Source of the DNA: Salvia splendens
Taxonomy: Eukaryota; Streptophyta; Magnoliopsida; Lamiales; Lamiaceae
Assembly (NCBI RefSeq): GCF_004379255.2
Contig: NC_056045.1
Location: 4,994,560 to 5,058,559 of the forward strand
Direction of reading: 5' to 3'
DNA length: 64,000 nt
A program made the position numbers and the translations under genes. Shown one piece after another: positions 7,991 through 22,830 of the stretch (its first letter is position 1; each line of letters starts with the position of its first letter). The notes beneath the pieces are model-generated. The model saw only the letters and a program-made list of their open reading frames with translations, ran no database searches and was not told where the DNA came from.

Positions 7991-8440
7991 CCACCAAACA
8001 ACTGTGGTTCAGGTCATAATGGAGGCATGTATTTTCTGCCTCCGATTCTTGCTCTTGAGCCTGTTGTATACCTATAAATGGGAGGGCAAATGAAGCGAGA
8101 TACTTACTGTAATGAGCCTAAAAACGTGTTGCCTGTTCGCACAGCGAAGCAAATTGCGCCCAATACCAACTTGTGCTGGTGAAGCAATGGTTCTAGACAG
8201 CGTTGCTCGGTAACACCAGCCAGAACCTGGTATCTGTTGGAGAAAACAAGGTGTTCGCACACATAAAGATTGTGGACAAGAACTATGATCAAACCTCAAC
8301 GGATTATCTGTCACGATCCCATATTATACTTGTGTAGGATATAAGCTCTTAAGATTACAGAATATGAGAGAAGACATTAAAAAAGAGTGTGTATTCTCGT
8401 AACATACCGAAGATTGCTTGATATACACATGTAAACACCA
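7991..8440. other. unassigned flank between gypsy and Harbinger elements
   Basis: Several short frames exist on both strands, none above 80 codons and none recognised. The base composition is less AT-rich than the spacers, so it could be a remnant of an older gene or element. No RNA gene or terminal repeat is visible. Confidence 0.4.
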
Positions 8441-8443
8441 TAA

Positions 8444-8991
8444 GAGCATCCGCCATTAGGCAAGCTCGAGGCGGACGCGGACTTCGCTTGTGGACACCGG
8501 AGTTCCGCTGATTTCCGACGACGTCCGCCATTGCGGGTTCCCGACGTATGTCCCAATTTTTATTTTTATTTTTTAAAAAAAAACTCTATATATACGGCTC
8601 GTTGAACTTCATTTCATTCGCACCACTTGTTTTAACGAGTTTCTTTCTCTATACTTTCATTTCTTTTGAAGATAAATGGAGCACTAAGATAGTAATTCCC
8701 CCGCCACGAGCGAGTTATAAACACCGACGTTTCCCATTAGAGTTGGGGGAAACGCCGGCGGAAGTGCACCGATGTCCGAGATGATGCCCGGAATGACGCC
8801 GATAATGCCCTAACCCCAAATGGCAGGGATGATGCAGAGATACTACAATATGTACCCCCGTGGTGTGCAGGGATGGGTGGGATGATGCCCAAAATGCCCA
8901 GGATGATGCCGCAAATGCCCGGGATGATGATGCCCGAGATGATGCAGGGCATGCCTGCCGCTGCGGGGGGAGCAGGCAGGGGGTCCCCTAA
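8444..8991 (+). mobile_element. PIF/Harbinger element, left fragment
   Basis: Starts with the terminal sequence GAGCATCCGCC after a TAA target site (8441-8443), the usual end type and 3-bp duplication of PIF/Harbinger. A leader resembling that of the element at 47309 follows (shared TCATTCGCACCACTTGTTTTAACGAG near 8618). Then comes a coding remnant rich in Met and Pro (MMPKMPRMMPQMPGMM) with stops and a frame change. The sequence is broken at 8991 by the gypsy-type element and resumes at 21096. Confidence 0.75.
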
Positions 8992-9320
8992 TGTTAAGGC
9001 TCTTCATCCTTAACGTAATCAAGAAACGGAGCCGACGTTGTCGAGCGCCCAATGCAATGGGTCGGCGACTAGTCCGGCGAAGGGGCGGCTGAGCGCGAGG
9101 ATCTCCCGTCGGCAGCCTTAGGGTTGTTTCTTAAAGCACAAGTATTTGAGCCAAAGTATTATTTCATAGATTCATTGACTAATTATTATGGAAGACTCCA
9201 CACATATTTATAATATGTGTGGATACAAAAAAGATATGATAATCCCTAAAATATCTCAACAAACTAATAATAATAGAAGAGGATCTAAACAAAATAATAT
9301 AGTAAAAGAGACTCGTATCA
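8992..9320 (-). repeat. 3' LTR of gene-carrying gypsy-type element
   Basis: Left copy of the 329/343-bp LTR pair. It lacks a 14-bp stretch present in the right copy at about 20782-20795. It is followed by a short tail whose other frame reads HLEDKVDFNRGG, a phrase typical of the end of plant gypsy polyproteins. Confidence 0.9.
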
Positions 9321-9448
9321 ACTCCCCCACGGTTAAAATCCACCTTGTCCTCAAGGTGGAAACCACGAAGCAACGAAAAGTTGAAAGAAGAAGCTTTGGC
9401 GATTTATCTCCACCTGGATCAAACGGACACGATCGTTGTTTCAATCTC

Positions 9449-9622
9449 CAATAACCTACTATTGCATATTCGATGTAAGCATCCTCAACGAACTTCCTCA
9501 TGATCGTAACATGAAATGGCTTGTTATCAAGTTCCCCCATCCTCTTTACACCCATACTAGAGTATATTGACTTGTCTTTCAACTCATCAACCGTATCTTC
9601 GCGAGCATCTTGTAGCTCATTT
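9449..9622 (-). pseudogene. captured XH-domain fragment (FDM/IDN2-like)
   Basis: The minus-strand frame (part of the ORF 9256-9909) reads NELQDAREDTVDEL, then MGVKRMGELDNKPF, then VEDAYIEYAIVGYW. This order (an LQ-AR helix, G-x-KRMGEL-x-x-KPF, then the segment leading to a W) matches the XH domain of plant FACTOR OF DNA METHYLATION / IDN2 proteins, which act in RNA-directed DNA methylation. Only part of the domain is present, and it is joined without a stop to the phosphatase-like segment upstream. Seen: motif and frame continuity. Known: XH domain family. Inferred: captured cDNA or gene piece. A profile search is needed to settle the assignment. Confidence 0.6.
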
Positions 9623-9626
9623 TTAT

Positions 9627-9742
9627 ACCGATTATGGAGCTTCTCTGGTATTGAAGGAGACACGAGGGACCATGTATCTGCATTCACTCCCTTCAGAGAT
9701 GTCTTTTCGAGACAACCGTCGAAATCAAATGTTGCAATTTTA
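9627..9742 (-). pseudogene. captured polynucleotide 3'-phosphatase fragment (ZDP/PNKP-like)
   Basis: In the same frame as the XH piece, the sequence IATFDFDGCLEKTS then WSLVSPSIPEKL matches the start of the DNA 3'-phosphatase domain of plant ZDP/PNKP proteins. D-F-D-G is the nucleophile motif of the HAD-type phosphatase. ZDP acts in base-excision repair and active DNA demethylation. The remaining catalytic motifs (the conserved Thr/Ser, Lys and second acidic pair) are absent, since the frame passes directly into the XH fragment at about 9625. It is not expected to be an active enzyme. Confidence 0.6.
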
Positions 9743-9909
9743 CTTGAATCATGAAGACCTTCATCGTCATCAATTTTATCCACCTCTATTGCAATCCCAT
9801 CAGAATGATCTTTGTTTTGCTGAATGCAATCCATCTTCGGCTGTGCATTACCACTACATGAAGTCTCATCTTCTGCTGTAACTGTCCTCTCTATTTGAGA
9901 GTCTTCCAA
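9743..9909 (-). pseudogene. captured CUE-gene fragment, distal part
   Basis: An acidic, Ser/Asp-rich low-complexity segment (VDKIDDDEGLHDSS; TAEDETSCSGNAQ) continues in frame into the phosphatase-like piece. It is separated from its proximal part (19275-19735) only by the Copia insertion. When one copy of the TCCAA duplication is counted, the frame runs through without shift. It is probably the linker or C-terminal part of the same captured gene as the CUE-like region. Confidence 0.5.
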
Positions 9910-12626
9910 TGAAGGGGTTGGCAGCGGAAGCGTGCATGATTTACCGATCATATAAACTTGATCTATTTAGCAGATTATTTAGACAAATTCTATTCGCGTA
10001 ATTATCACATGTATCATGCTCATAACTTGAATTAAAAACAAGCTTTAGCACATAAAATCCCTAAAGCATGCTTACTACGGAATTAGCCAATTTACCTCGT
10101 AGATTCAATCAAGAATCGATGATGGCTTGCTCCTTCTCCACGTGAAGATCTTCAATACAAGACCTCGGATCTTCTGACTGGTGTCCCGGACTATACGCTG
10201 ATATTTGTGTGGGCAAACCTCACCAACGTACTAGGACTCGAATAATGGAAGACAGAAACTGCTCACGGAGGGAGCACAAATTTCGAGCTCTCTCTTTCTA
10301 GAGGGGGACGAAAATTTTGTATATTAAAAGGTGTATCTTCTGTCTCCTTTATTCTCCTATTTATATAAGTCACATATTGGGCCCAGTCAGGGATCTAAGG
10401 AAGAATTTGGAACAGGCCTCACCCAATTAGCTTTTTACTAATTAAATTGAACCCACAATTTAATATAAGCTTATATTGGAATATTACGAGCAGCCACTAC
10501 ATAAGTAATATTGTACTGCCTTCCAAATCCGAAATTGCAAGTATTCCGGGTTTCCTTTAATTGCATTTGATTTATTTCCCGCGCTTAAGATAGAAACATC
10601 CATTAATTAATTAATGTCTGCTATAGACTTAATTAATTAATATATTTCGAATTCCAAGAGTGGACTTAGCAAGAAACTCTTATTTATTATTCATAGAGTA
10701 ATCAAACTCCAACTAGCTAGGTTCCGAATAATAAAACCTCGTTTCGAGCTCCTCTTGTGGATGTTATCAAACGAGACACTCCTCGCGCACGTTTCAACAT
10801 AATAGCAATCCTAGTACCGCTAGATAATGATCACCACTAGGGATGTCAATGTAACCCGAACCCGCGGGCCGGCCCGAATAACCCGATAAAAATGCAGGGT
10901 TAGGGTTGTAATTTCGCAGCCCGAATTTAAAATCGGGCCATTCGGGCTGACCCGTTCGGGTTGTCGGGTTAGGCGGGCTGACCCGCTCGGGTTACGGGTC
11001 GGCCCGTCGGGTTGAAGGCTTCTGCACAGCGAGCAGTTTTTGTAACGGTCATAGCTTTCTCTACAAATCTCCGATTGAAGCGTGCAATATATCCACGCGA
11101 AGCTCTTTCGAAGACGAAGAGAATGATATGTATTAGAGGTTTATCAGACTTCAAAATCGCGAGAAACATTGACTCAAACAAGGCTGCTGCACATCCACAT
11201 ATTTTGTGTGCATTTTCTAATCAATTTTCTATCATTTCTCAACAAACATGTAAACATACCAAAATATAGAAATATAATCAAAATCATCCAAGACAACCCT
11301 CTAAAACCATGCAAAATCCAAATACGTAAACCGACTATATAAGATCACAAAAAAATCACCATGTGGTTCATGGATTCATAAATACCCGTATATAAAGACT
11401 TTCTTTTAGTATATTTCCAATATAATAGTGCAAAGTGTTTTGACGCCGCTTTGTCATTGAATTATGCGTACTTTGATGATTCTTAAAACAAAGATAAATT
11501 ATTATTTGACTTATTTACAGATGGAATAAATTCATAATTCAAGAAAACTTAGAGTTACTCCAATTAGCTAGCATCTTGATAATTCACTCTTTAACAATTC
11601 AAAATATTTTTGTTACATCTACGATGCACCTCTCACGTTATGAAAATTTTATTTAATTTTCTACGAATTGATTTATGTTTAAATTTTGAAACAAAGTGTT
11701 GATTTATGTTTTAAATACATAAACATAAACATACTATTGATAGATATTTTGTAAATAATTATGTAATGAATAAGTTATTTAAATTTAAATAACTTAATCT
11801 TTTTAAAAAATATTAAAGAAAATTAAAAATACGTATTTCATTGTTGAATGATTAATTAAAAATATGTATATAATTAAAGAAAATTTAAATACGTATTATT
11901 TTTTTGAAAATATTAAAAGAATTAAAAATACGCATTGGCCCGAATAACCCGGTGGGTTAGCCCGAAACCCGAAGGGTTAGGGTTAGGGTCGAACTTTTAT
12001 AACCCGAAAAAATCATAACCCGAATAACCCGTAACCGAATGGCCCGACAACCCGAACGGGTTGGCCCGATTGACATCCCTAATCACCACTACCCAATATA
12101 CCTGGATCGTTGGGTTACGAAAAACCCGCACCTTTGGTAAGTCAAAGTAGTGGATACTCAATGTCGTGTGCTCAACGCTAACGTACATTGATTAAGAAAT
12201 TAATTATCAAGACCTCGTCTTTCAGTAGAGAGCATAAAGACTCGTCTTGCTGTTAGATCCATTCAGTGCTATACCACACCAACGTCATCTTATTTCAATA
12301 AGGCTTAGAAATAATCGGACTGACATTGCAACCTTTCGCGATAGGTAGTCTAGCCCTATCTAGGTTGTGAAATTCTTATTTTTCTTTGTTTAGAACTGAC
12401 CGTGTTACCTTAAATTGGACGACGCCCACAACCGGTCTACTAAAACAAAGACTTAGACTTTGTTAAGTTTGCTTATACATTTAAATATGCAATAAACAAC
12501 CATTAAATGTAAAACATAACAAAATTATGACAAAAATAATCTGTTGCATTTATTAGAAAATAACCATTAGAGTTTTACAGTATGCTATCACTCGAAAGGT
12601 GATTTCTAGTATATAAAACCCTAACA
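9910..12626 (-). repeat. 3' LTR of Copia element (complete, interrupted)
   Basis: From TGAAGGGG to CCCTAACA. Subtracting the nested element and its duplicated 8 bp gives about 1465 bp. It retains a 30-bp stretch (about 10756-10785) missing from the 5' LTR, where deletion occurred between two CTCCT copies. A TATA-like box lies near 10365-10375 (minus strand). Confidence 0.88.
10838..12081. mobile_element. hAT-like non-autonomous element with CCCGAA-rich ends
   Basis: Ends TAGGGATGTCAAT / ATTGACATCCCTA are inverted repeats, and ATCACCAC is duplicated at 10830-10837 and 12082-12089, an 8-bp duplication as in hAT elements. The empty site is present in the other LTR of the host Copia element (about 18726). 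Both ends are packed with ACCCG/CGGGT repeats; the AT-rich centre holds no recognised transposase. Confidence 0.9.
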
Positions 12627-12637
12627 ATCTCCCACTT
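12627..12637 (-). other. polypurine tract of Copia element
   Basis: On the minus strand AAGTGGGAGAT directly precedes the TGTTAGGG start of the 3' LTR, the usual Copia arrangement. Confidence 0.75.
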
Positions 12638-12697
12638 ATACTCAAAACAGCTTTCAAGTATACAAAATGGTAGTGCACACGTCTAAATTTCTCCCAC

Positions 12698-14100
12698 TTA
12701 TACTGAAAGCGAGTTGAGGTCTTGAATGAGCCGAACTCCCATCCCTTCAACGTGGCATTCGAACGGTTTCACCGCCAAAGCCTTTGTAAAAGGATCTGCC
12801 AGGTTGTTCTCTGACGCAATCTTGACCACTTTTATGTCTCCTCTCTGCACTATATCTCTAATGATATGATACTTCCGCTCTATATGTTTGCTCGCTTTGT
12901 GAGCTCTTGGTTCTTTCGAGTTTGCCACAGCACCAGAATTGTCACAATAAATGGTGATGCTCTTGGGCAGATTCGAAACCACACCTAAATCCATAACGAA
13001 GTTCTTGAACCATACCACCTCTTTTGCAGCCTCCGAAGCGGCCACATACTCGGCTTCCATGGTCGAGTCCGCGATGCATTTCTGCTTCACACTCTTCCAA
13101 ATTACGGCTCCACCTCCTAAGGTGAACACATATCCTGAAGTAGATTTTCTCGAGTCCTGATCAGCTTGAAAGTCTGAGTCAGTATATCCCAAAGGACAGA
13201 GCTCGGCTGCATTGTAAACTAGAGCATAGTCCTTAGTCCGTTTAAGGTACTTGAGTATGTTCTTTACGGCAGTCCAATGTCCTTGGCCCGGATTCGACTG
13301 ATATCTTGCCACCATGCCAACAACAAAGCAAATATCAGGTCTAGTACAAAGCATAGCATACATGAGACTTCCAACTGCCGAAGCATATGGAATCCTTCTC
13401 ATTTCCTGTATCTCAGACTGCGTTTTAGGGCACATCTCTTGAGATAAATGGATACCATGTCTAAAAGGTAAGAAACCTTTCTTGGCATCCTGCATGCTAA
13501 AACGACTAAGTACTGTTTCGATGTAAGATTCTTGAGATAAGCACAACATCTTCTTCTCTTGATTCCGAAGAACCTTGATCCCGAGGATGTGTCCCGCGTC
13601 TCCCATATCCTTCATCTCGAACTGGTTCGACAACCATGTTCGAACTGATGACAACATCTTTTTATTGTTTCCAATTAGAAGAATGTCATCTACATATAAA
13701 ACTAAGAACACTACATTCCCCTTATCAACTTTCTTATACACACAACTTTCACTTGGGCACTTTTCGAATCCAATCTTGCAAACAGTTTGATCGAAACATT
13801 GGTTCCACGATCTAGATGCTTGCTTGAGGCCATAAATGGCCTTCTTAAGCTTCCAAACCATGTGTTATTTGCCCTTTATGGCATATCCTTCGGGTTGTTC
13901 CATGTAGATGGTCTCCTCAAGACTGTCGTTGAGAAACGCAGTCTTAACGTCCATCTGCCATACATCCCAATCCATATAAGCTGCAATAGACAACAGTATC
14001 CGGATCGATTTGAGCATGGCCACTGGGGAGAAGGTCTCATCATAATCGATGCCTTCCTTTTGGGTATACCCCTTGGCCACTAGTCTTGCTTTGAAGACTT
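12698..14100 (-). pseudogene. pol: Copia reverse transcriptase and RNase H
   Basis: Reverse transcriptase motifs run from [17 protein letters not shown] and VKTAFLN (ORF to 13865) through YGLKQASRSWNQCFD to the catalytic YVDDILLIG. RNase H follows (YTDSDFQADQDSRKSTSGYVF, MEAEYVAASEA, CDNSGAVANS, HIERKYHIIRDIV). A TAA at about 13862-13864 splits the domain between AIKGK and MVWKLKKAIYG. The end of the frame lies close to the 3' LTR, as expected. Not functional as it stands. Confidence 0.9.
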
Positions 14101-14434
14101 TAACTCATCCATCGGGTCCACGTTTACGTTTATATATCCACTTGCTCTCAATGGCAGTACAACCTTCGGGTAGGACGGACAAATCGTAGACGTCTTTGTC
14201 TATCATAGATTGTAGTTCCGAATCCATTGCTTTCACTCATTCGCAATGATCGACATCTGCCAGAGCTTCCGCAAAGTTCCAGGGATCTAATACATTGCTG
14301 TCCGAGGAGTGATCCATAGATTCCCCAAAATCAATGTATCTGTCGGGCTCATGTGAGACCCTCCCACTGCGGTGCGGCACTATAATATTTTGAGTAGAAG
14401 TTGAAGTTTCGGGAATTGTTTGTACACTTGGTAC

Positions 14435-15376
14435 TTATTCTTGGTTAATGGAACTTGTGACAGAAGTTAGCTCATCAAGAGCCACTTCACTGCTGGGTTT
14501 ATGATTCATTACATAGTCTTCCTCTAAGAATGTCGCGTGAGTGCTCACAATGACTTTCTTATCTCGGAGACTAAAGAATTCATAACCTTTCGTCCCTTTG
14601 GGGTATCCTATAAACAAACATACCTCCGTCCTAGATCCTAGCTTAGTTGGATCCTTTTCCAATACATGAGCCGGGCAACCCCAAACCTTGAGATGTGCTA
14701 GATTGGGCTTACGCCCAGTCCACAACTCATATGGAGTTTTAGGTACGGATTTTGATGGTAAATTGTCTAAAATGTGACTTGCAGAAAGCAAGGCATGTCC
14801 CTAAAACGAAATAGGCAGACGTGCATAACTCATCATCGATCGAACCATGTTTAATAAGGTCATGTTCCTTCTTTCAGCCACGCCGTTCTGCTGGGGCGTG
14901 CCCAGCGCAGTCAGTTGGGATTCAATTCCCACTTCCGATAAGTAGTCCAAAAATTCGGCACTGAGGTATTCGCCTCCCCGATCAGATCGTAGGCATTTGA
15001 TATTCTTCCCATGATACTTCTCCACAAGAGTCTTAAAGTCTTTAAACTTGTCAAAAGACTCTGACTTGTGACGCATCAAGTAGACATATCCAATTTTCGA
15101 GAAGTCATCAATAAAAGTGATGAAGTATCGAAAACCACCTCTTGCCTCAGTTGACATTGGTCCACATACATCGGAATGAACGAGCTCAAGTACTTCCTTG
15201 GCCCTATTGCCCTTAGCCTTAAAAGGCCTCTTGGTCATCTTGCCTTCTAAGCATGACTCACACTTATGAAAAGGTTCCTCCTCTAGACCTTTGATAAGAT
15301 CTTGTTGAACAAGAGAATGGATCCTCCTTTCATTGGCATGACCAAGTCTAAGGTGCCACAAGTACGTTTCGTTCAT
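14435..15376 (-). pseudogene. pol: Copia integrase
   Basis: Contains the HHCC region (WHLRLGHANERRIHSL, CESCLEGK) and the D,D,E core ([29 protein letters not shown]). A stop at about 14798-14800 divides it from the downstream part (LDNLPSKSVPKTPYELWTG and KVWGCPAHVLEKDP). The stretch 14100-14434 continues the linker towards reverse transcriptase with further stops. The domain order confirms Copia. Confidence 0.9.
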
Positions 15377-15394
15377 TGAACTTGAAGGTTCCTT

Positions 15395-16048
15395 TCATTT
15401 CTTTGAAATTTTCGATGTTGTATTGAGTTCTGATTTGCGATTATTAAACTGTGTAGAAGTGATTGTATACAGATTGTTTTCCATGATACCACGACAGATA
15501 TAAGAACCATCTTTCTTAATAACGCAATTGTCATTAAAAGAAATCGAATATCCATCATAAACCAATTTAGAAACTGAAATTAAATTTCTTCTAAAAGAAG
15601 GTATCAACAAAACATTCTTCAAAATAAAAAATCTATCACTACTAAAACGCAAATAAATGTCTCCCACTGCAACGACTGCCACTTTGGTAGCGTCGCCCAG
15701 CTGGACTTCAATCTCACGATCATGTAGCCGTCTTGTCACCTGCATTAAGTCAGGATCAAAATAAATATGATCAGTGGCTCCTGTGTCAATAACCCAAGTG
15801 CAAATTGATGTCGAAGTCAAACAAGACTCGACAACTAGAGCCTGGTGCATACCTGTAGCCTTGCCCCATTTAGGACAGTCTGGCTTCCAATGCCCCTTCT
15901 CTCCACACTTGAAACACTTCCCCGTGGGCTTCTTGTTAGCCCTCTTCTTCTTCTTTCCCTTAGCTATCTTGGCCGGTCCTGAGTTCGGTGCCTGCCTTTT
16001 TCCTTTGCTAGGCTTTAAGCCAGAGGAACGAGGCGCCGAAATCATCAT
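15395..16048 (-). pseudogene. pol: Copia zinc knuckle and aspartic protease
   Basis: Basic N-terminal stretch, CCHC zinc knuckle (CFKCGEKGHWKPDC) and the protease active site WVIDTGATDHI with the expected D-T-G-A. A shift or stop separates it from gag (16085) and from integrase (15376). In an intact element these would form one polyprotein. Confidence 0.88.
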
Positions 16049-16084
16049 GGCGGCCTTATCCTAGACCATAAGGTCCTCTGCCGA

Positions 16085-16657
16085 CTAAAGTTCAGTCAAC
16101 AGCTCTGCCAAGGTGTAATTCCTTTTGTTCATCTCGAAGTTGAGCTTGAACTGTTGGAAGCTAGGGGGAAGACTTTGAAGGATGATAGTAACCTGGGACT
16201 CGGGATCGATCGTCCCTCCCAAGACCTCAATTTGGTTGAGGTGGCCCATCATCTCGAGGACGTGGTCCCTCACAGACGAGCCTTCCTTCATTGTCTTCGA
16301 CATGATACTCCGAAAGGCTTGAGACTTAGCCGTTCGATTCTGAGTACCAAAAAGATTCTTGAGATTCTGCATAATCTCGGCGGCAGTTTCCATAGCAGAA
16401 TGCTGATGCTTGAGTACTGATGACATAGATGCCAACATGTAGCACTTAGCCATCTCATTCGCCTTATGCCACCGTCTGTGTGCATCTCTGACTCCTGCCG
16501 CAGCGTTAGCCGGCGGCACTGGAGGTCGCGGGGTGGTGAGCACAAAGATGTACTCATCTGCTGTGAGAACCATGTCCAAATTTTGTTTCCATTCTATGTA
16601 ATTTTGGCCCTCGAGTTTATTTTCTTTGAGAATTGCAGAAAGAGGATTGAACGACAT
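16085..16657 (-). pseudogene. gag: Copia gag N-terminal part
   Basis: From ATG 16657 (MSFNPLSAILKENKLEG). The GQNYIEWKQNLDMVL segment and the helical region ending NYTLAELLTEL are typical of the Copia UBN2/gag family. A stop at 16085 cuts it from the zinc-knuckle segment downstream. Confidence 0.88.
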
Positions 16658-18121
16658 ATTGACGATTTGATTTGCACTGCAAAACAGAGTATCTTACTAT
16701 TGTCATAAACTTATGTAAAAAGTTTGATTAGATTAACCATAAAACTTTTCAAAATCTTACAACTGTAAAATTAAAATTTTGTACCCTCCAGAGGAAGTCA
16801 ATACGCATTAAAATCTTACAATTTTACTGGTCACAACACCGACGAATAGTCCAGAGACCACAGAGTGGCATGGCCGCCTAATGTTGCCTAAGCAAGACCA
16901 TATCTTTAGCATTACAGAGTCTCATTTCTACAACACACTCCCATAACAATGCTCATGTAATGCTAACAAGATCAACCTATCTCATAAATCCTGTGTGAAC
17001 TTCTAAATCTCGCAGTTTCTTAGGATTATTGTCCCCACAGAGCAGGCGGCGATAATATTGGAAACTACATTCTAGTTCATACTATTTAGATTTGAGAAGT
17101 CCGCCCTCATGAACTTGCTATTTTCTTAGGATTATTGTCCCCACAGAGCAGGTGGCGATAATATTAGAAAAAGGCTTCATAAATTGCAGACCAATTGATG
17201 GAGACCATATACAAACGTTGAGTTCGTAATTATAGCTTAGATATTTTGGGTTATGGTTTTTCTTTAATTATCCTTAGCCTTAGGGCAGAGAAAGACTTTC
17301 ATTAAATTCTGTTGGTATTTAATTTGCTGGATAATTAAATCTTTTATTAATTGGTATCTTCCTTTAGGAAATTATTGTTCTAGAATATAATTCGTATTCA
17401 TGTCTACTATAAGATATGTCTCAAATAAATAAATTATTTAATTCTTAATAAGACATGAAAAATTAAATTCAAATTAATTCCATGTTCAAGATTAGGAAGA
17501 GATATTTCATTATTTAATGTATTCATACATATCTATCCTTTTTAGGATCTTAGATATATAAATATTAGGAAACTATTAAATTATTCTTATCCATATCATC
17601 TAGGAATCAAAATAAAATTATTTATTTCCATAGATATAGAAAATAATAAAAATATTCCTTAAATCTAGACAAATATTAGGAAACTATTAAATTATTCTCA
17701 TCTATATCATCTAGGAATAAAATAATATTATTTATTTCCATAGATATAGATAATAATAAAAATATTCCTAAAATCTAGACAAATCTTCCAAAAAGATTTT
17801 ATTTCCATTAAATAATAATATTTTAATGATATCTTTTAATAAAATAATTAAATAATCATTAAAATAATCCTTCATCGTTATCTCATCGTACGAGGTTCGA
17901 ACGAACGATGAACGACGAAGATCCGATGAATTCGTCGTCGAATCACGACGCACGCAGCGTCTCGGACACTAGCGAGCGCCCGTCTCGGTCGTCTCGACCG
18001 TCGGGTGCCGACGCGTCTCGGCCAGCTGAGCACGTCGGGTGACGCGGTCCTCGGCCAGCGGCGCGCACGACGGTGGCGCTGTTCTCGGCCAGTTGCTGTC
18101 GCCTGTCTCGGCCTATCCGAG
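16658..18121. other. Copia leader region between gag and truncated 5' LTR
   Basis: No gene. Contains two copies of a segment with ATTATTGTCCCCACAGAGCA (about 17026 and 17129) and two copies of an AT-rich segment with AGGAAACTATTAAATTATTC (about 17567 and 17679). A CpG-rich block lies at 17940-18121, where CTCGGCCAG occurs three times. The missing LTR end and primer site would have lain at the right edge. Confidence 0.65.
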
Positions 18122-19269
18122 CGCTGATATTTGTGTGAGCAAATCTCACCAACGTACTAGGACTCGAATAATGGAAGACAGAAACTGCTCACGGAGGGAG
18201 CACAAATTTCGAGCTCTCTCTTTCTAGAGGGGGACGAAAATTTTGTATATTAAAGGTGTATCTTCTGTCTCCTTTATTCTCCTATTTATATAAGTCACAT
18301 ATTGGGCCCAGTCAGGGATCTAAGGAAGAATTTGGAACAAGCCTCACCCAATTAGCTTTTTACTAATTAAATTGAACCCACAATTTAATATAAGCTTATA
18401 TTGGAATATTACGAGCAGCCACTACAGAAGTAATATTGTACTGCCTTCCAAATCCGAAATTGCAAGTATTCCGAGTTTCCTTTAATTGCATTTGATTTAT
18501 TTCCCGCGCTTAAGATAGAAACATCCATTAATTAATTAATATCTGCTATAGACTTAATTAATTAACATATTTCGAATTCCAAGAGTGGACTTAGCAAGAA
18601 ACTCTTATTTATTATTCATAGAGTAATCAAACTCCAACTAGCTAGGTTCCGAATAATAAAACCTCGTTTCGAGCTCCTCGCGCACGTTTCAACATAATAG
18701 CAATCCTAGTACCGCTAGATAATGATCACCACTACCCAATATACCTGGATCGTTGGGTTACGAAAAACCCGCACCTTTGGTAAGTCAAAGTAGTGGATAC
18801 TCAATATCGTGTGCTCAATGCTAACGTACATTGATTAAAAAATTAATTATCAAGACCTCGTCTTTCAGTAGATAGCATAAAGACTCGTCTTGCTGTTAGA
18901 TCCATTCAGTGCTATACCACACCAACGTCATCTTATTTCAATAAGGCTTAGAAATAATCGGACTGACATTGCAACCTTTCGCGATAGGTAGTCTAGCCCT
19001 ATCTAGGTTGTGAAATTCTTATTTTTCTTTGTTTAGAACTGACCGTGTTACCTTAAATTGGACGACGCCCACAACCGGTCTACTAAAACAAAGACTTAGA
19101 CTTTGTTACGTTTGCTTATACATTTAAATATGCAATAAACAACCATTAAATGTAAAACATAACAAAATTATGACAAAAATAATCTGTTGCATTTATTGGA
19201 AAATAACCATTAGAGTTTTACAGTATGCAATCACTCGAAAGGTGATTTCTAGTATACAAAACCCTAACA
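18122..19269 (-). repeat. 5' LTR of Copia element, truncated
   Basis: Homologous to 10196-12626 without the nested hAT element. Its outer end (...CCTAACA then TCCAA) is intact; its inner end is cut at 18122, losing 286 bp. It also has a 30-bp internal deletion at about 18677. Confidence 0.9.
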
Positions 19270-19274
19270 TCCAA

Positions 19275-19735
19275 AACTTCCATACAACAAGTTCCATCTC
19301 TAGTTTCACCTACCACCACCAGTGATTTAGCCTGAGAATGAATGTCATGATGAGTTTCCACATCAAGATGCCCTGAACTTGCATCACCAACAGGTTCACT
19401 TAGCCCAACTTCAGCACAACCGGACGATTCTTTCTTTCCACTAACAAAAATACTATGATCATCATCAGCTTGATCTGCGAACTCTGTTATCACAGACAAG
19501 CTACCGTATGATGATTCGCCCGCAATAGCACTCCAAGTCAAAGGACTAGTTGGTGCAGATCTTTCAGTGAAGAAATGAATTGTCTCCTCAAGCATTGTTT
19601 CAACAGCCGCATCAACATCATTGATATGATCGATGGCAACAGCCCTAAGAGCTCGATCATCAACCAAAGGAAAAAAATCTCGCAGAGAGTCGTAGAATTT
19701 CTGGAAAGTCAGCAGGGGCTGCTTCACAGTAGTGG
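19275..19735 (-). pseudogene. captured CUE-like domain fragment
   Basis: The minus-strand frame reads LTFQKFYDSLRDFFPLVDDR, then ALRAVAIDHINDVDAAVETML. The FP-x-VD...LRAVAIDH...DVDAAVE pattern matches a CUE-type ubiquitin-binding helix bundle as found in several plant proteins. An acidic/Ser-rich tail follows. The segment is joined upstream to the element's own Pro/Trp-rich leader and downstream, across the Copia insertion, to 9743-9909. Seen: motif and open frame. Inferred: host-gene capture. The exact donor gene is not identified. Confidence 0.55.
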
Positions 19736-20724
19736 GCAATTCGAGGCTGGATACAGTCCGATTGAGGTGATTTGAGGGCGAGCGTTGTGGTATAGGTGGC
19801 GGGGCAGCTGCAGGCAGCGGCGCTGCTGATCGTTGGTGACTAGGTGAATCAGACACCGTGCGAGTAGGTTGCCAAGGTTGTGTGCCCGGGCGTGGGCTGC
19901 GCTGCTGCCGGAAGTGATCGGTTTGCCGCATGGGTGTATCCCAACAACTAGGCAGACATGGTGGTGGCTGATCATAATCCGAGTATCCTTGCGATGCACG
20001 GTGAGACGGTGGTTCCCAATAAGAGGGCTGCCATAACCGTGGTGGGTCGTAGGGATGGAAGCTCGGTATTGGTCGGTTACCGGGAGGATCCCAACAGGAG
20101 GGGCAGTTGAAGGGGGGTCCCACGATGTAGGTTGTCGGTCCACGCGAAAGCCCCTATCAAACTCCGTTGTGATGCGAGCTGATGGTCTATCCCAGCTCGT
20201 GCGAGGCCACGAAGCAGTGTGTGCGCGATATGGAATCGTGCCAGAGCCAGACTGTGCGAGCCCTGCCTCTCGCATGTTTAAATCACGACCCGTACCCCTA
20301 CGCCGGCGGACATCCCCACCACGGTCACGCCTACGGTGGTTGAAAATCAGGGGGCCGTCCTCGTCGGTCGGCCAGACGTCTCCCTGGGAACGATACCCAT
20401 CGACGTCCCCGTCGTCCGAAAAATAGGGCTGATCCGGTTCGGGAAGGCGTGTGGCCTTCAAACTATCAACCCTTCTATCCCTCGCATCCAATTTCAATTC
20501 CAATTGATCAAATCTTGTCATATTTTGTCCAGCGCTGACATGGTAGGTACGAACGCCCACGATCCATTGCGCAGCGCGCTGCTTGACTCCGGGTCGTCGC
20601 GTTGTATCCGCTGCCATCCGTTACCGAGGCAGCCACTCGCCGTGAAGCATTGGGGCTGATCGGTTCCCAACTCCTGGGCGTTGCCTCCGATAAGGAGGCC
20701 GGTCGGTGGTGCTTGATCGGCCAT
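19736..20724 (-). pseudogene. gag-like leader ORFs of gene-carrying gypsy-type element
   Basis: Begins at ATG 20724 (MADQAPPTGLL), 28 bp from the 5' LTR, and continues in three overlapping frames (20518-20724, 19724-20617, 19218-20123), so one or more shifts exist. The content is a helix (MTRFDQLELKLDARDRRVDS), an Arg/Asp-rich stretch, then Pro/Trp/Asp repeats (SWDPPSTAPP, PSCWDPPGNR, PSYWEPPSHR). It resembles the N-terminal region of gypsy gag without the capsid core. Confidence 0.5.
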
Positions 20725-20752
20725 GGTTGAGATCACAATGAAAGACACCAGT

Positions 20753-21095
20753 TGTTAAGGATCTTTCTCCTTAACGTCGAATTCCACACGTAATCAAGAA
20801 ACGGAGCCGACGTTATCGAGCGCCCAATGCAATGGGTCGGCGACTAGTCCGGCGAAGGGGCGGCTGAGCGCGAGGATCTCTCGTCGGCAGCCTTAGGGTT
20901 GTTTCTTAAAGCACAAGTATTTGAGCCAAAGTATTATTTCATAGATTCATTGACTAATTATTATGGAAGACTCCACTCATATTTATAATATGTGTGGATA
21001 CAAAAAAGATATGATAGTCCCTAAAATATCTCAACAAACTAATAATAATAGAAGAGGATCTAAACAAAATAATATAGTAAAAGAGACTCGTATCA
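20753..21095 (-). repeat. 5' LTR of gene-carrying gypsy-type element
   Basis: 343-bp copy with TG...CA ends, partner of 8992-9320. On its left, the minus strand reads ACTGGTGTCTTTCATTG, a leader resembling that of many plant gypsy elements, with the first ATG 28 bp in. Confidence 0.9.
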
Positions 21096-22090
21096 CCCAA
21101 TCACCTGGGGACAATGTCTATCGCCCCTACATGGAATTATTGTCGAGTGATTCCCCCAAGAGTACTCCTCTAGAGACTGAGTTCACCGGCATCGAGACTT
21201 TCTCTTTTGAGGAGTTGGGACTATCTCCGGTCAGGGAGTCTCCCACTGAGATGCAACCGGCGGCAGGGAGGACGCAGAAGCAAGGGAGGGGGAAGGGCAA
21301 GGGCACTACCTCGTCTTCGTGTGCGGGGAACGAGGGTGGGTCGGGGGTTGAGGGGGTGAGGGAGGAAGCCGGTGGGAGAAAGATGATCATCTGGAGCATA
21401 GGGGAGTGCGTCGCGCTGGCGAAGGCCCGGGTCGGTGTAGTCGAGGATCCCTACGCCGGGGCTAACCAGCACATCGACAGAATATGGTGGCGCATTAGCC
21501 AAAGCTACCTCCAATTCAAACTGCCAGGTGGGAAGCCTCACGATGGAGAGCAATGCCGGAAGCAGTGGGAGCGGCTGAGGAGGCAGCTCAGCTGATTTTC
21601 CGGTATCTACCAAAACAACCTCCGCACGGCATCAAGCGGCATGTCCGCCGATGATGTGAAGCTTCTGTCTCACCAGCAGTACCCCGACAGTGAATTGGGT
21701 TTCGGGGAGTTCAAATATTGGGAGGTCTATTTTGTGGTGCAAACTTCCGCCAAGTTTAGTGCGTGTGTTGATGCTGGCTGGCCGAAGCGGACGAAGATCA
21801 ACGCCTCCGGAGAGTACAGCAGCATTGCTGTTCCCACGAACTCCCTAACGTCGAGGCAGAGTTCTCGACCCCTCAATCGTCTTTCCTCCGCCGTCGCCCG
21901 GTTGGGCAAAAGACCGCGATGCGGATGGCTAGGGGAAGCGCCAGTGAGTCCCACGAGGTCCAATCGGAATCTCTGTCCCTGGTCACTCCCGAGCTCAACA
22001 ATCTTGCCCGTGTGCAGCTAACGCAGAGTATGCTCGACACCATGAACAAGTGGTATGCAGCGACTGATACCAAGAGAATGCCCGCACCAA
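21096..22090 (+). pseudogene. PIF/Harbinger Myb/trihelix-like accessory ORF, right fragment
   Basis: Resumes the element begun at 8444. The frame 21096-21595 contains PGDNVYRPYMELL, a basic GRGKGKG linker, then a trihelix-like DNA-binding region (IDRIWWRISQSYLQF, CRKQWERLRRQLS). After a stop at 21593 the homology continues in frame at 21641 (DSELGFGEFKYWEVYFVV). In another frame it ends with a NAM-associated C-terminal-like helix (NLARVQLTQSMLDTMNKWY, to about 22060). This is the DNA-binding partner of the PIF/Harbinger transposase; the transposase itself and the right terminal repeat are not found. Confidence 0.65.
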
Positions 22091-22830
22091 GAGACATCTG
22101 AGATATTTGATCCGAGAACACAAGATTTTGTTTGCTGCAGTGATTGAACCACAGAGGACACCACCAGCTTTAGGCCAAAATTTCCAGGGCCTTCGGTTTG
22201 CAGGATCTAATGAAAGTGGTCACATTTGGATTCTTGCCCATGAAGATTGGACAGTGGAAGTGGTAGATGACTCGAGACAGGCTTTACACGTTAAGGTTTC
22301 TGCTGTAATCTTCCCCTTTCCGATCTATATTACCATTGTCTATGGGAGACACACGAGAGAGACGAGACAAGCACTTTGGGAAAAGCTGGGAGATCTCTCG
22401 CTGGTCATGGAGGGCAGACCGTGGCTAGTGGGTGGAGATTTCAACATGTTCCTAACCAATGAAGAGAGACAGGGGAGTAATACAGATAGACACAGAGACA
22501 TGATGGACTTTGCCGATGCTATTGCCGAGTGCCAGCTGATAGACCCGGGTTTTGATGGACCGATATTCACGTGGCACAGGGGGGCTTTGGGAAAGGTTGG
22601 ACCGCATCTTGATTGGAGAGCACTGGACTTCAGTTTTTGCAACTACTCGAGTGACACATTTGGCGAGATTCAGCTCTGATCATGCGCCTCTCTTGGTGAG
22701 ATGCCAATTTTCTGTCCAGACCACGAGACCGGCTTTCAGATTTCAAAATATGTGGGTCAGACATGAGACTTTTAGGGGCGAGATTGCCAGAATATGGGAG
22801 GGAGAGACAGGGTATAATGGCAAGATGAAC
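22091..22830 (+). pseudogene. LINE AP endonuclease domain
   Basis: Contains VGGDFNMF (catalytic D and N), HRDMMDFADAIAE and ERLDRILIGEHW, then FSSDHAPLLV (catalytic S-D-H). A frame change at about 22590 separates the first two thirds from the last. It would nick target DNA during retrotransposition. Confidence 0.85.

What the first reader, a model, noticed from the sequence alone, without database searches (positions are those of the whole stretch)
9449..19735. Retrotransposon carrying a three-way fusion of host gene fragments: CUE-like, DNA 3'-phosphatase-like and XH domain
Within one LTR pair (8992-21095), minus-strand open frames contain a CUE-like motif (19570-19700), a ZDP/PNKP-type D-F-D-G phosphatase motif (9710-9730) and an XH-domain motif (9449-9622). 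In plants, ZDP acts in active DNA demethylation, and XH proteins (FDM/IDN2) act in RNA-directed DNA methylation. Seen: motifs and frames. Known: families. Inferred: the element captured host transcripts and made a chimeric ORF. Finding pieces from two opposite DNA-methylation pathways in one transposon is unusual and could be chance or could matter for silencing, by competing as a dominant-negative protein or by producing siRNAs against the donors.
Basis: partly seen in the sequence, partly recalled or inferred. Interest (0 to 1): 0.88.

Follow-up and report, generated by a model that had tools for sequence, protein, structure and literature searches.

The report
Jumping gene stitched from host mRNAs
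In scarlet sage, a short retrotransposon carries intronless pieces of three host genes (a CUE-domain gene, the DNA-repair phosphatase ZDP and an XS/XH gene), likely picked up from spliced host messenger RNAs; the ZDP and XH pieces recur in dozens of genomic copies, show no significant sign of selection as protein, and are likely passengers that could at most feed small RNAs matching their donor genes.

Summary
Inside LTRs 8992-9320/20753-21095 lie pieces of a CUE-domain gene, ZDP and an XS/XH gene, split by a later Ty1/copia insertion (9910-19269, TSD TCCAA). The genome is Salvia splendens; donor genes for all three pieces were found in it. Four donor introns (CUE 2, ZDP 1, XH 1) are absent from the element, so the pieces came from spliced RNA. 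In the wider family ZDP lies between two colinear pieces of one XH gene. The CUE-ZDP-XH fusion occurs in the window copy and four others; three are 2.4-kb units with perfect 5-bp TSDs and nearly identical LTRs, the fourth has a 631-codon open frame but a cut 5' end. The ZDP-XH block occurs in at least 39 further places. The same Gag N-terminal backbone also carries DUF1666 pieces (45+6 places by profile; 3 read). The functional idea is not supported: ZDP and XH domains are truncated, dN/dS is about 1, and the window copy's frame is broken. RNA-level cross-talk stays open: 25 of 30 loci have perfect matches of 21 nt or more to both ZDP and XH donors. The kind is known (maize Bs1, soybean GmaRetroS15); copy number, nested capture and cargo exchange make it a new variant.

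The parts
20753..21095 (-). 5' LTR of the outer element (343 bp)
   Evidence: repeat D3; ends and alignment
8992..9320 (-). 3' LTR of the outer element (329 bp)
8987..8991 (.). left target-site duplication CCTAA (right copy CCCAA 21096-21100; 4 of 5 alike)
20725..20752 (-). leader with a PBS-like start next to the 5' LTR (tRNA not tested)
   Evidence: sequence
9321..9335 (-). polypurine tract GTGGGGGAGT before the 3' LTR
   Evidence: sequence
19712..20724 (-). Gag N-terminal part (ATG at 20724) without capsid; in this copy it lies in three frames
   Evidence: tblastn with the L068 frame; relatives' Gag-N is 45% identical to residues 11-219 of Gag P0016, whose capsid match starts at 236
19275..19711 (-). 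CUE-gene piece, first part (donor SASPL_135174 from codon 2; two donor introns absent)
9780..9909 (-). CUE-gene piece, second part, cut off from the first by the copia insertion (includes the TSD copy 9905-9909)
   Evidence: 93.9% to donor L061 over 9779-9909
9603..9773 (-). ZDP piece, two donor exons joined; holds the D-F-D-G motif
9492..9608 (-). XH piece, two donor exons joined (upper end overlaps the ZDP piece by a few bases)
9336..9491 (-). element 3' tail, read in frame after the XH piece; its first part has no identified donor
   Evidence: tail shared by the copies printed there
9910..19269 (-). later Ty1/copia element inserted in the CUE piece; TSD TCCAA at 9905-9909 and 19270-19274
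10838..12081 (.). still later hAT-like insertion in the copia left LTR (TSD ATCACCAC)

Best explanation
This is a non-autonomous Ty3/gypsy-type LTR retrotransposon whose capsid and pol genes are replaced by intronless pieces of three Salvia splendens genes (CUE-domain, ZDP and XS/XH), likely acquired when reverse transcriptase switched templates onto co-packaged spliced host mRNAs, and it is predicted to be moved by the proteins of an autonomous relative. Shown: LTRs, PPT, a Gag N-terminus that ends before the capsid, donor genes, missing introns, further copies with target-site duplications, and different cargo behind the same Gag-N backbone. Inferred: co-packaging and template switching, the helper, and the order of events (XH first, ZDP between two XH-gene pieces, then CUE replacing the upstream XH piece; DUF1666 pieces on sister lineages). 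The window copy was later split by a Ty1/copia element. At protein level the cargo is most likely a passenger; any effect on the donors would act through RNA.
For: Donors located: CUE gene, ZDP genes on C16 and C15, XS/XH genes on C14 and C13. Introns absent: ZDP 1 and XH 1 (315 bp), joined exactly at their splice sites; CUE about 104 and 204 bp. The CUE-ZDP-XH fusion recurs at four other sites, three with perfect 5-bp TSDs and LTR mismatches 4/326, 0 of 319 aligned bases (plus 20 gap columns) and 1/322; the fourth shows no LTR pair in the fetched stretch. The ZDP-XH block recurs in 39 further places; 5 of the 29 loci read show perfect TSDs in 2.16-2.26 kb units. Backbone and cargo are discordant: the window Gag-N is 93% identical (399 nt) to L068, which carries DUF1666, but 71% (249 nt) to L016, with which it shares the ZDP-XH block at 95%. 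Gag-N aligns to Gag residues 11-219 of P0016, whose capsid match begins at 236.
Against: No autonomous partner was located in this genome (the search with P0016 did not complete). The window copy's TSD is 4 of 5. Of the 29 loci, 8 showed no LTR pair in view, 13 gave no TG..CA-bounded unit within the fetched stretch and 3 gave units whose flanks match at only 2-3 of 5 bases. Template switching itself is not observed; recombination between element copies could also have moved cargo. About 60 nt between the upstream XH piece and ZDP, and the start of the 3' tail, have no identified donor.
Confidence: 0.88

Rival explanations
1. The chimeric frame makes a working protein (Gag-N with a CUE ubiquitin-binding domain and pieces of ZDP and XH) that helps the element or blocks host methylation factors as a dominant negative.
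For: Frames tend to stay open: 24 of 30 ZDP-XH blocks have neither frameshift nor stop, and the indels shared by several copies are of 3, 6 or 9 bases; sibling L057 has 631 open codons stop to stop; 14 DUF1666 places share a frame of exactly 530 aa. The CUE piece covers the stretch in which the relative P0100 matches the CUE profile (residues 8-42).
Against: CUE piece against donors: dN/dS 1.05 and 0.86 for the window copy, 1.32-2.28 for the four siblings. Shared changes among copies 47 nonsynonymous to 16 synonymous against opportunities 1126:367. Codon-model test p about 0.07. Stop-making changes 2 of 173 against 5.8 expected, p 0.07. ZDP and XH domains are truncated. In L057 the first ATG is at residue 107, and its sibling L059 has a frameshift.
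Confidence: 0.07
2. Cargo RNA from many copies feeds siRNAs that tune the donor genes, including an IDN2/FDM-type gene and ZDP.
For: 25 of 30 loci have perfect runs of 21 nt or more to both XH and ZDP donor loci, longest 40 and 37 nt; a control stretch of the window gives 13 at most. [quoted passage not shown]
Against: No small-RNA data here; the matched stretches are short and 82-91% identical overall; nothing shows that donors are affected.
Confidence: 0.12
3. Chance motif resemblance: not real host fragments.
For: Pfam scores of the window frame fall below the curated cut-offs.
Against: Donor DNA matches of 82-97% over stretches of 49-231 nt that follow donor exons.
Confidence: 0.01
4. DNA-level capture by a Helitron or Pack-MULE-like transposon that later joined the LTR element.
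For: Such elements capture gene pieces in plants (passages of PMC13317346, and of PMC4717578).
Against: Introns of all three donors are missing; copies have LTRs and 5-bp TSDs; no inverted repeats of 60 nt or more in 8000-22500.
Confidence: 0.02

Closest known systems
Bs1 retroelement of maize
   Same: LTR element with three transductions from three host genes and a chimeric gene that is transcribed and translated (passages of PMC13317346); exon-only capture (PMC4717578 section 13)
   Different: Different genes. Here the ZDP-XH cargo is in at least 44 places (window, 39 and 4 CUE siblings), one captured gene lies between two pieces of another, and the same Gag-N backbone is found with other cargo. 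Bs1's low copy number is recalled; [quoted passage not shown] No expression was tested here.
GmaRetroS15 and other gene-carrying TRIMs of soybean
   Same: Short LTR element with fragments of three host genes, exons only; most gene-carrying TRIMs there have two or more copies and 5-bp TSDs (PMC4717578 section 13)
   Different: TRIMs there are 1.17-1.45 kb; the units measured here are 2.16-2.45 kb, keep a Gag N-terminus and in some copies join cargo to it in one frame
LTR-captured genes of rice and sorghum
   Same: 672 and 1,343 host genes captured by LTR elements; many rice cases have become pseudogenes under neutral selection (abstract of PMC3726574)
   Different: The abstract reports purifying selection and expression for many sorghum cases, unlike here, and does not describe stepwise multi-gene chimeras in one amplified family

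Membership tests
LTR retrotransposon, Ty3/gypsy type | Paired LTRs with TG..CA ends | tested here: met
LTR retrotransposon, Ty3/gypsy type | 5-bp target-site duplication | tested here: met
   window 4 of 5; perfect in 3 of 4 CUE siblings and in 5 of 29 ZDP-XH loci
LTR retrotransposon, Ty3/gypsy type | PPT and PBS next to the LTRs | tested here: inconclusive
   PPT clear, PBS-like start seen, no tRNA match tested
LTR retrotransposon, Ty3/gypsy type | Own capsid, protease, RT and integrase | tested here: not met
   no such Pfam match in L057 or L068; L069 keeps a partial Ty3_capsid match of 19.1 bits under the 29.1 cut-off: a non-autonomous derivative
Transducing retroelement (Bs1 kind) | Pieces of several host genes without introns | tested here: met
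Transducing retroelement (Bs1 kind) | Chimeric ORF joined to Gag | tested here: met
   in sister copies: L016 464 codons, L068 530 codons, L057 631 codons, all counted stop to stop; the window copy itself is broken
Transducing retroelement (Bs1 kind) | Chimeric protein expressed | not testable with these tools
   no RNA or protein data
ZDP / PNK3P phosphatase | Complete phosphatase domain | tested here: not met
   profile positions 1-45 of 161, 20.1 bits under the 22-bit cut-off
XS/XH (IDN2/FDM) protein | Complete XH domain plus XS domain | tested here: not met
   XH positions 1-25 of 131, 16 bits under 22.2; no XS match
CUE-domain protein | CUE domain by Pfam | tested here: inconclusive
   window piece and S. 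splendens donor no hit; relative P0100 21.1 bits at cut-off 21.1
Pack-MULE / Helitron | Terminal inverted repeats or Helitron ends, introns kept | tested here: not met
   no inverted repeats of 60 nt or more, introns absent; Helitron ends not scanned

The most novel reading that the evidence does not exclude
A Gag-N mini-retrotransposon platform in Salvia splendens repeatedly swaps host mRNA pieces in and out as cassettes, and its ZDP- and IDN2/FDM-matching cargo, carried by dozens of copies, supplies small RNAs that dampen both arms of the host's DNA-methylation control, giving the element a route to escape silencing.
Probability: 0.08. Interest if true: 0.85.

Novelty: new variant of a known kind. 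Interest (0 to 1): 0.56.

Why it matters
Multi-gene capture by plant LTR elements is known from cases such as Bs1 and GmaRetroS15. Here one genome holds a family in which capture, nesting, exchange of cargo and amplification can be ordered from copies that still exist, with donor genes in the same genome and LTRs young enough to date. That makes the mechanism (template switching onto spliced mRNA, helper-driven spread) and the fate of the cargo (neutral passenger or siRNA source) directly testable. The published annotation of this genome retained only LTR candidates with complete Gag-Pol proteins as intact elements (passage of PMC8408255), so elements of this kind would probably have been passed over.

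Tried and rejected
Chance motifs: rejected by donor alignments. Ordinary host gene with three domains: rejected, because the pieces map to three separate multi-exon genes and the fusion recurs between LTRs. Purifying selection on the protein: tests not significant, with a weak, non-significant deficit of stops (a per-site count; one search shows three actual stop codons). A viral-contig scan with the ZDP-XH frame found nothing; a PDB search with it found nothing. The first CUE protein search found nothing, probably because the 755-residue donor is outside the size range allowed for that query; a longer query found it. A count of the ZDP-XH family beyond the 40 scored candidates (of 1740) was not possible. 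The census by Gag-N and the search for the autonomous partner did not complete. In the rows listed by the paper searches I saw no paper on such elements in Salvia (only 36 and 113 had Salvia as a term); that is not proof of absence.
Full report
WHERE IT IS. The window is G000:C14:4994560-5058559 of an 806-Mb genome. Its contig lengths agree with those behind S. splendens proteins, and the longest, 47.13 Mb, agrees with the published assembly V2.0 (passages of PMC8408255). The host is therefore scarlet sage, Salvia splendens.

THE ELEMENT. The outer element runs on the minus strand from a 5' LTR (20753-21095) to a 3' LTR (8992-9320), with TG..CA ends and 7 substitutions in 329 sites; at the rate of 1.3e-8 used in PMC8408255 that is about 0.8 million years. 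Flanking 5-mers are CCTAA and CCCAA. A leader with a PBS-like start follows the 5' LTR, and GTGGGGGAGT precedes the 3' LTR. The coding part starts at 20724 with a Gag-like N-terminus. In sister copies this part is 45% identical to residues 11-219 of P0016, a Gag with a Ty3 capsid match from residue 236 and a protease match; in L057 and L068 neither capsid nor anything of pol is found.

THE INSERTED COPIA. A Ty1/copia element with gag and RT domains fills 9910-19269 with TSD TCCAA on both sides. It split one captured piece: the CUE donor protein reads through the insertion point without a gap, and the rejoined flanks give one open frame of 510 codons. A hAT-like insertion with an 8-bp TSD lies inside the copia's left LTR (10838-12081). 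Order: outer element, then copia, then hAT-like. The window copy's Gag part lies in three frames relative to the frame of L068.

DONORS AND INTRONS. CUE: SASPL_135174, 755 aa, 163 of 192 residues identical, captured from codon 2. Its gene at C13:7105380-7105903 and a near-identical copy on C919 are split into exons; the C13 copy has gaps of about 104 and 204 bp that the element lacks, and the three exon stretches are 88-97% identical. ZDP: two exons of the genes on C16 and C15, 82-91% identical in the window copy, L016 and L013, joined exactly at the splice sites in L016. P0019, on a contig of C16's length, has zf-PARP and PNK3P. XH: a pair of near-identical genes at C14:29341117 and C13:32231817 (homoeologues by inference); two exons at about 85%, joined exactly across a 315-bp intron (L016 against L041). 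The C14 gene has zf-XS, XS and XH matches, and its XS part has one PDB match, 4e8u, which I recall as the Arabidopsis IDN2 XS domain. [quoted passage not shown] Four introns from three genes are thus missing.

NESTING. In L016, a copy of the ZDP-XH family, a 60-nt piece of the same XH gene, 90% identical, lies upstream of the ZDP piece; about 60 nt of unknown origin follow, then ZDP, then the two XH exons. In the window copy the upstream XH piece is replaced by the CUE piece; at the switch point 14 nt are alike in donor, L016 and window with one difference each.

COPIES. The block 9319-9792 occurs in 39 further places at 89-95%, plus one 68-base scrap; 40 of 1740 candidates were scored, so this is a lower bound, and no listed row other than the window shares 9793-9905. 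I fetched 29 of the 39. Of these, 8 showed no LTR pair in view, 13 gave no TG..CA-bounded unit inside the fetched stretch, 8 gave one; of these 8, 5 (2.16-2.26 kb) have perfect TSDs and 3 match at 2-3 of 5 bases (ends chosen by a scan of a few bases). The CUE-ZDP-XH fusion occurs at four more sites (C11, C19, C2, C16). Three are units of 2.43-2.45 kb with perfect TSDs whose LTR pairs differ by 4 of 326, 0 of 319 aligned bases (plus 20 gap columns) and 1 of 322; L057 shows no LTR pair. L057 has a 631-codon frame, stop to stop, but its 5' end is cut and the first ATG is at residue 107; L056 and L058 have Gag and cargo in overlapping frames; L059 has a one-base frameshift. These four lack about 70 nt of the XH piece.

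OTHER CARGO. In the DUF1666 search, 45 of 91 rows cover profile positions 31-34 to 102-121, 42 of them without stops and 14 in a frame of exactly 530 aa; 6 more rows cover positions 18-78 in frames of 635-700 aa without stops (my count from the table). That all of these are elements is inferred; I read three. L068 and L070 have the window-type Gag-N (92-93%) fused to a DUF1666 piece, and L068 has LTRs 99.4% alike. L069 has another Gag with a weak capsid match, fused to a different DUF1666 part. The window's Gag-N is 93% identical (399 nt) to L068 but 71% (249 nt) to L016, while its ZDP-XH block is 95% identical to L016: backbone and cargo have different histories.

SELECTION. In 30 aligned ZDP-XH blocks (window and 29), 3 have frameshifting indels and 3 others a stop; indels shared by several copies are of 3, 6 or 9 bases. 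A codon model on 26 of 30 (dropped: L022, L026, L033 frameshifted; L029 with a different start; 25 distinct) gives lnL -1685.54 free and -1687.18 at omega 1 with the best kappa tried, p about 0.07 by my arithmetic. Counts are neutral for shared (47:16) and single (79:28) changes against 1126:367. The CUE piece of the window against the two donor copies gives dN/dS 1.05 and 0.86; the four siblings against one donor copy 1.32-2.28. Stop-making changes are 2 of 173 against 5.8 expected, p 0.07. So there is no significant constraint on the protein, and perhaps mild constraint on staying open.

RNA-LEVEL POTENTIAL. Perfect runs of 21 nt or more: XH donor loci 26 of 30, ZDP donor loci 29 of 30, both 25 of 30, longest 40 and 37 nt; a control stretch of the window gives 13 at most. 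The 29 fetched loci were compared whole and against genomic donor loci; the run itself was printed for the window copy only. This permits but does not show siRNA cross-talk.

MECHANISM. Best account: Gag-N element RNA and spliced host mRNAs are packaged together, reverse transcriptase switches between them, and the chimeric cDNA integrates and spreads with borrowed proteins. Template switching between unrelated packaged RNAs is described as a route to chimeric elements (passages of PMC13317346). The host pieces, missing introns, copies and cargo differences are shown; packaging, switching and the helper are inferred.

KNOWN KIND. Bs1 of maize and GmaRetroS15 of soybean are direct precedents for three-gene, exon-only capture. 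What differs here is the scale, one captured gene lying between two pieces of another, and exchange of cargo behind a retained Gag N-terminus. PMC2899935 (Bs1) was not held; details of Bs1 beyond the cited passages are recalled.

Noticed in passing
window 10838-12081: hAT-like insertion with inverted ends TAGGGATGTCAAT/ATTGACATCCCTA and 8-bp TSD ATCACCAC inside the copia left LTR (the hAT label is recalled)
   Followed up: partly
window 8741-8991 and 21096-21595: The outer element seems to interrupt a plus-strand open frame that resembles a Myb/SANT-like protein of PIF/Harbinger type (label recalled; no Pfam match over its cut-off)
   Followed up: no
window 22068-22679: Plus-strand frame with a weak Exo_endo_phos match (20.7 bits, cut-off 24.5), LINE-like
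   Followed up: no
proteins P0001, P0003, P0004, P0005, P0007, P0010, P0011: Public gene models join the element's ZDP-XH frame to other exons (for example SDR, isopropylmalate synthase, receptor kinase), leaving the element at the same point after ...IV; prediction artefact or real exonisation
   Followed up: no
G000:C5:12504364, 12506581, 12508515: Three DUF1666-type frames about 2.2 and 1.9 kb apart on one strand: possible tandem array of elements sharing LTRs
   Followed up: partly
L019:2491-3480 minus, L038:2548-3441 plus: Neighbouring Gag-like frames joined to further sequence without Pfam match: maybe more captured genes
   Followed up: partly
window 17609-17803: Two 85-nt AT-rich direct repeats 110 nt apart inside the copia element
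   Followed up: no
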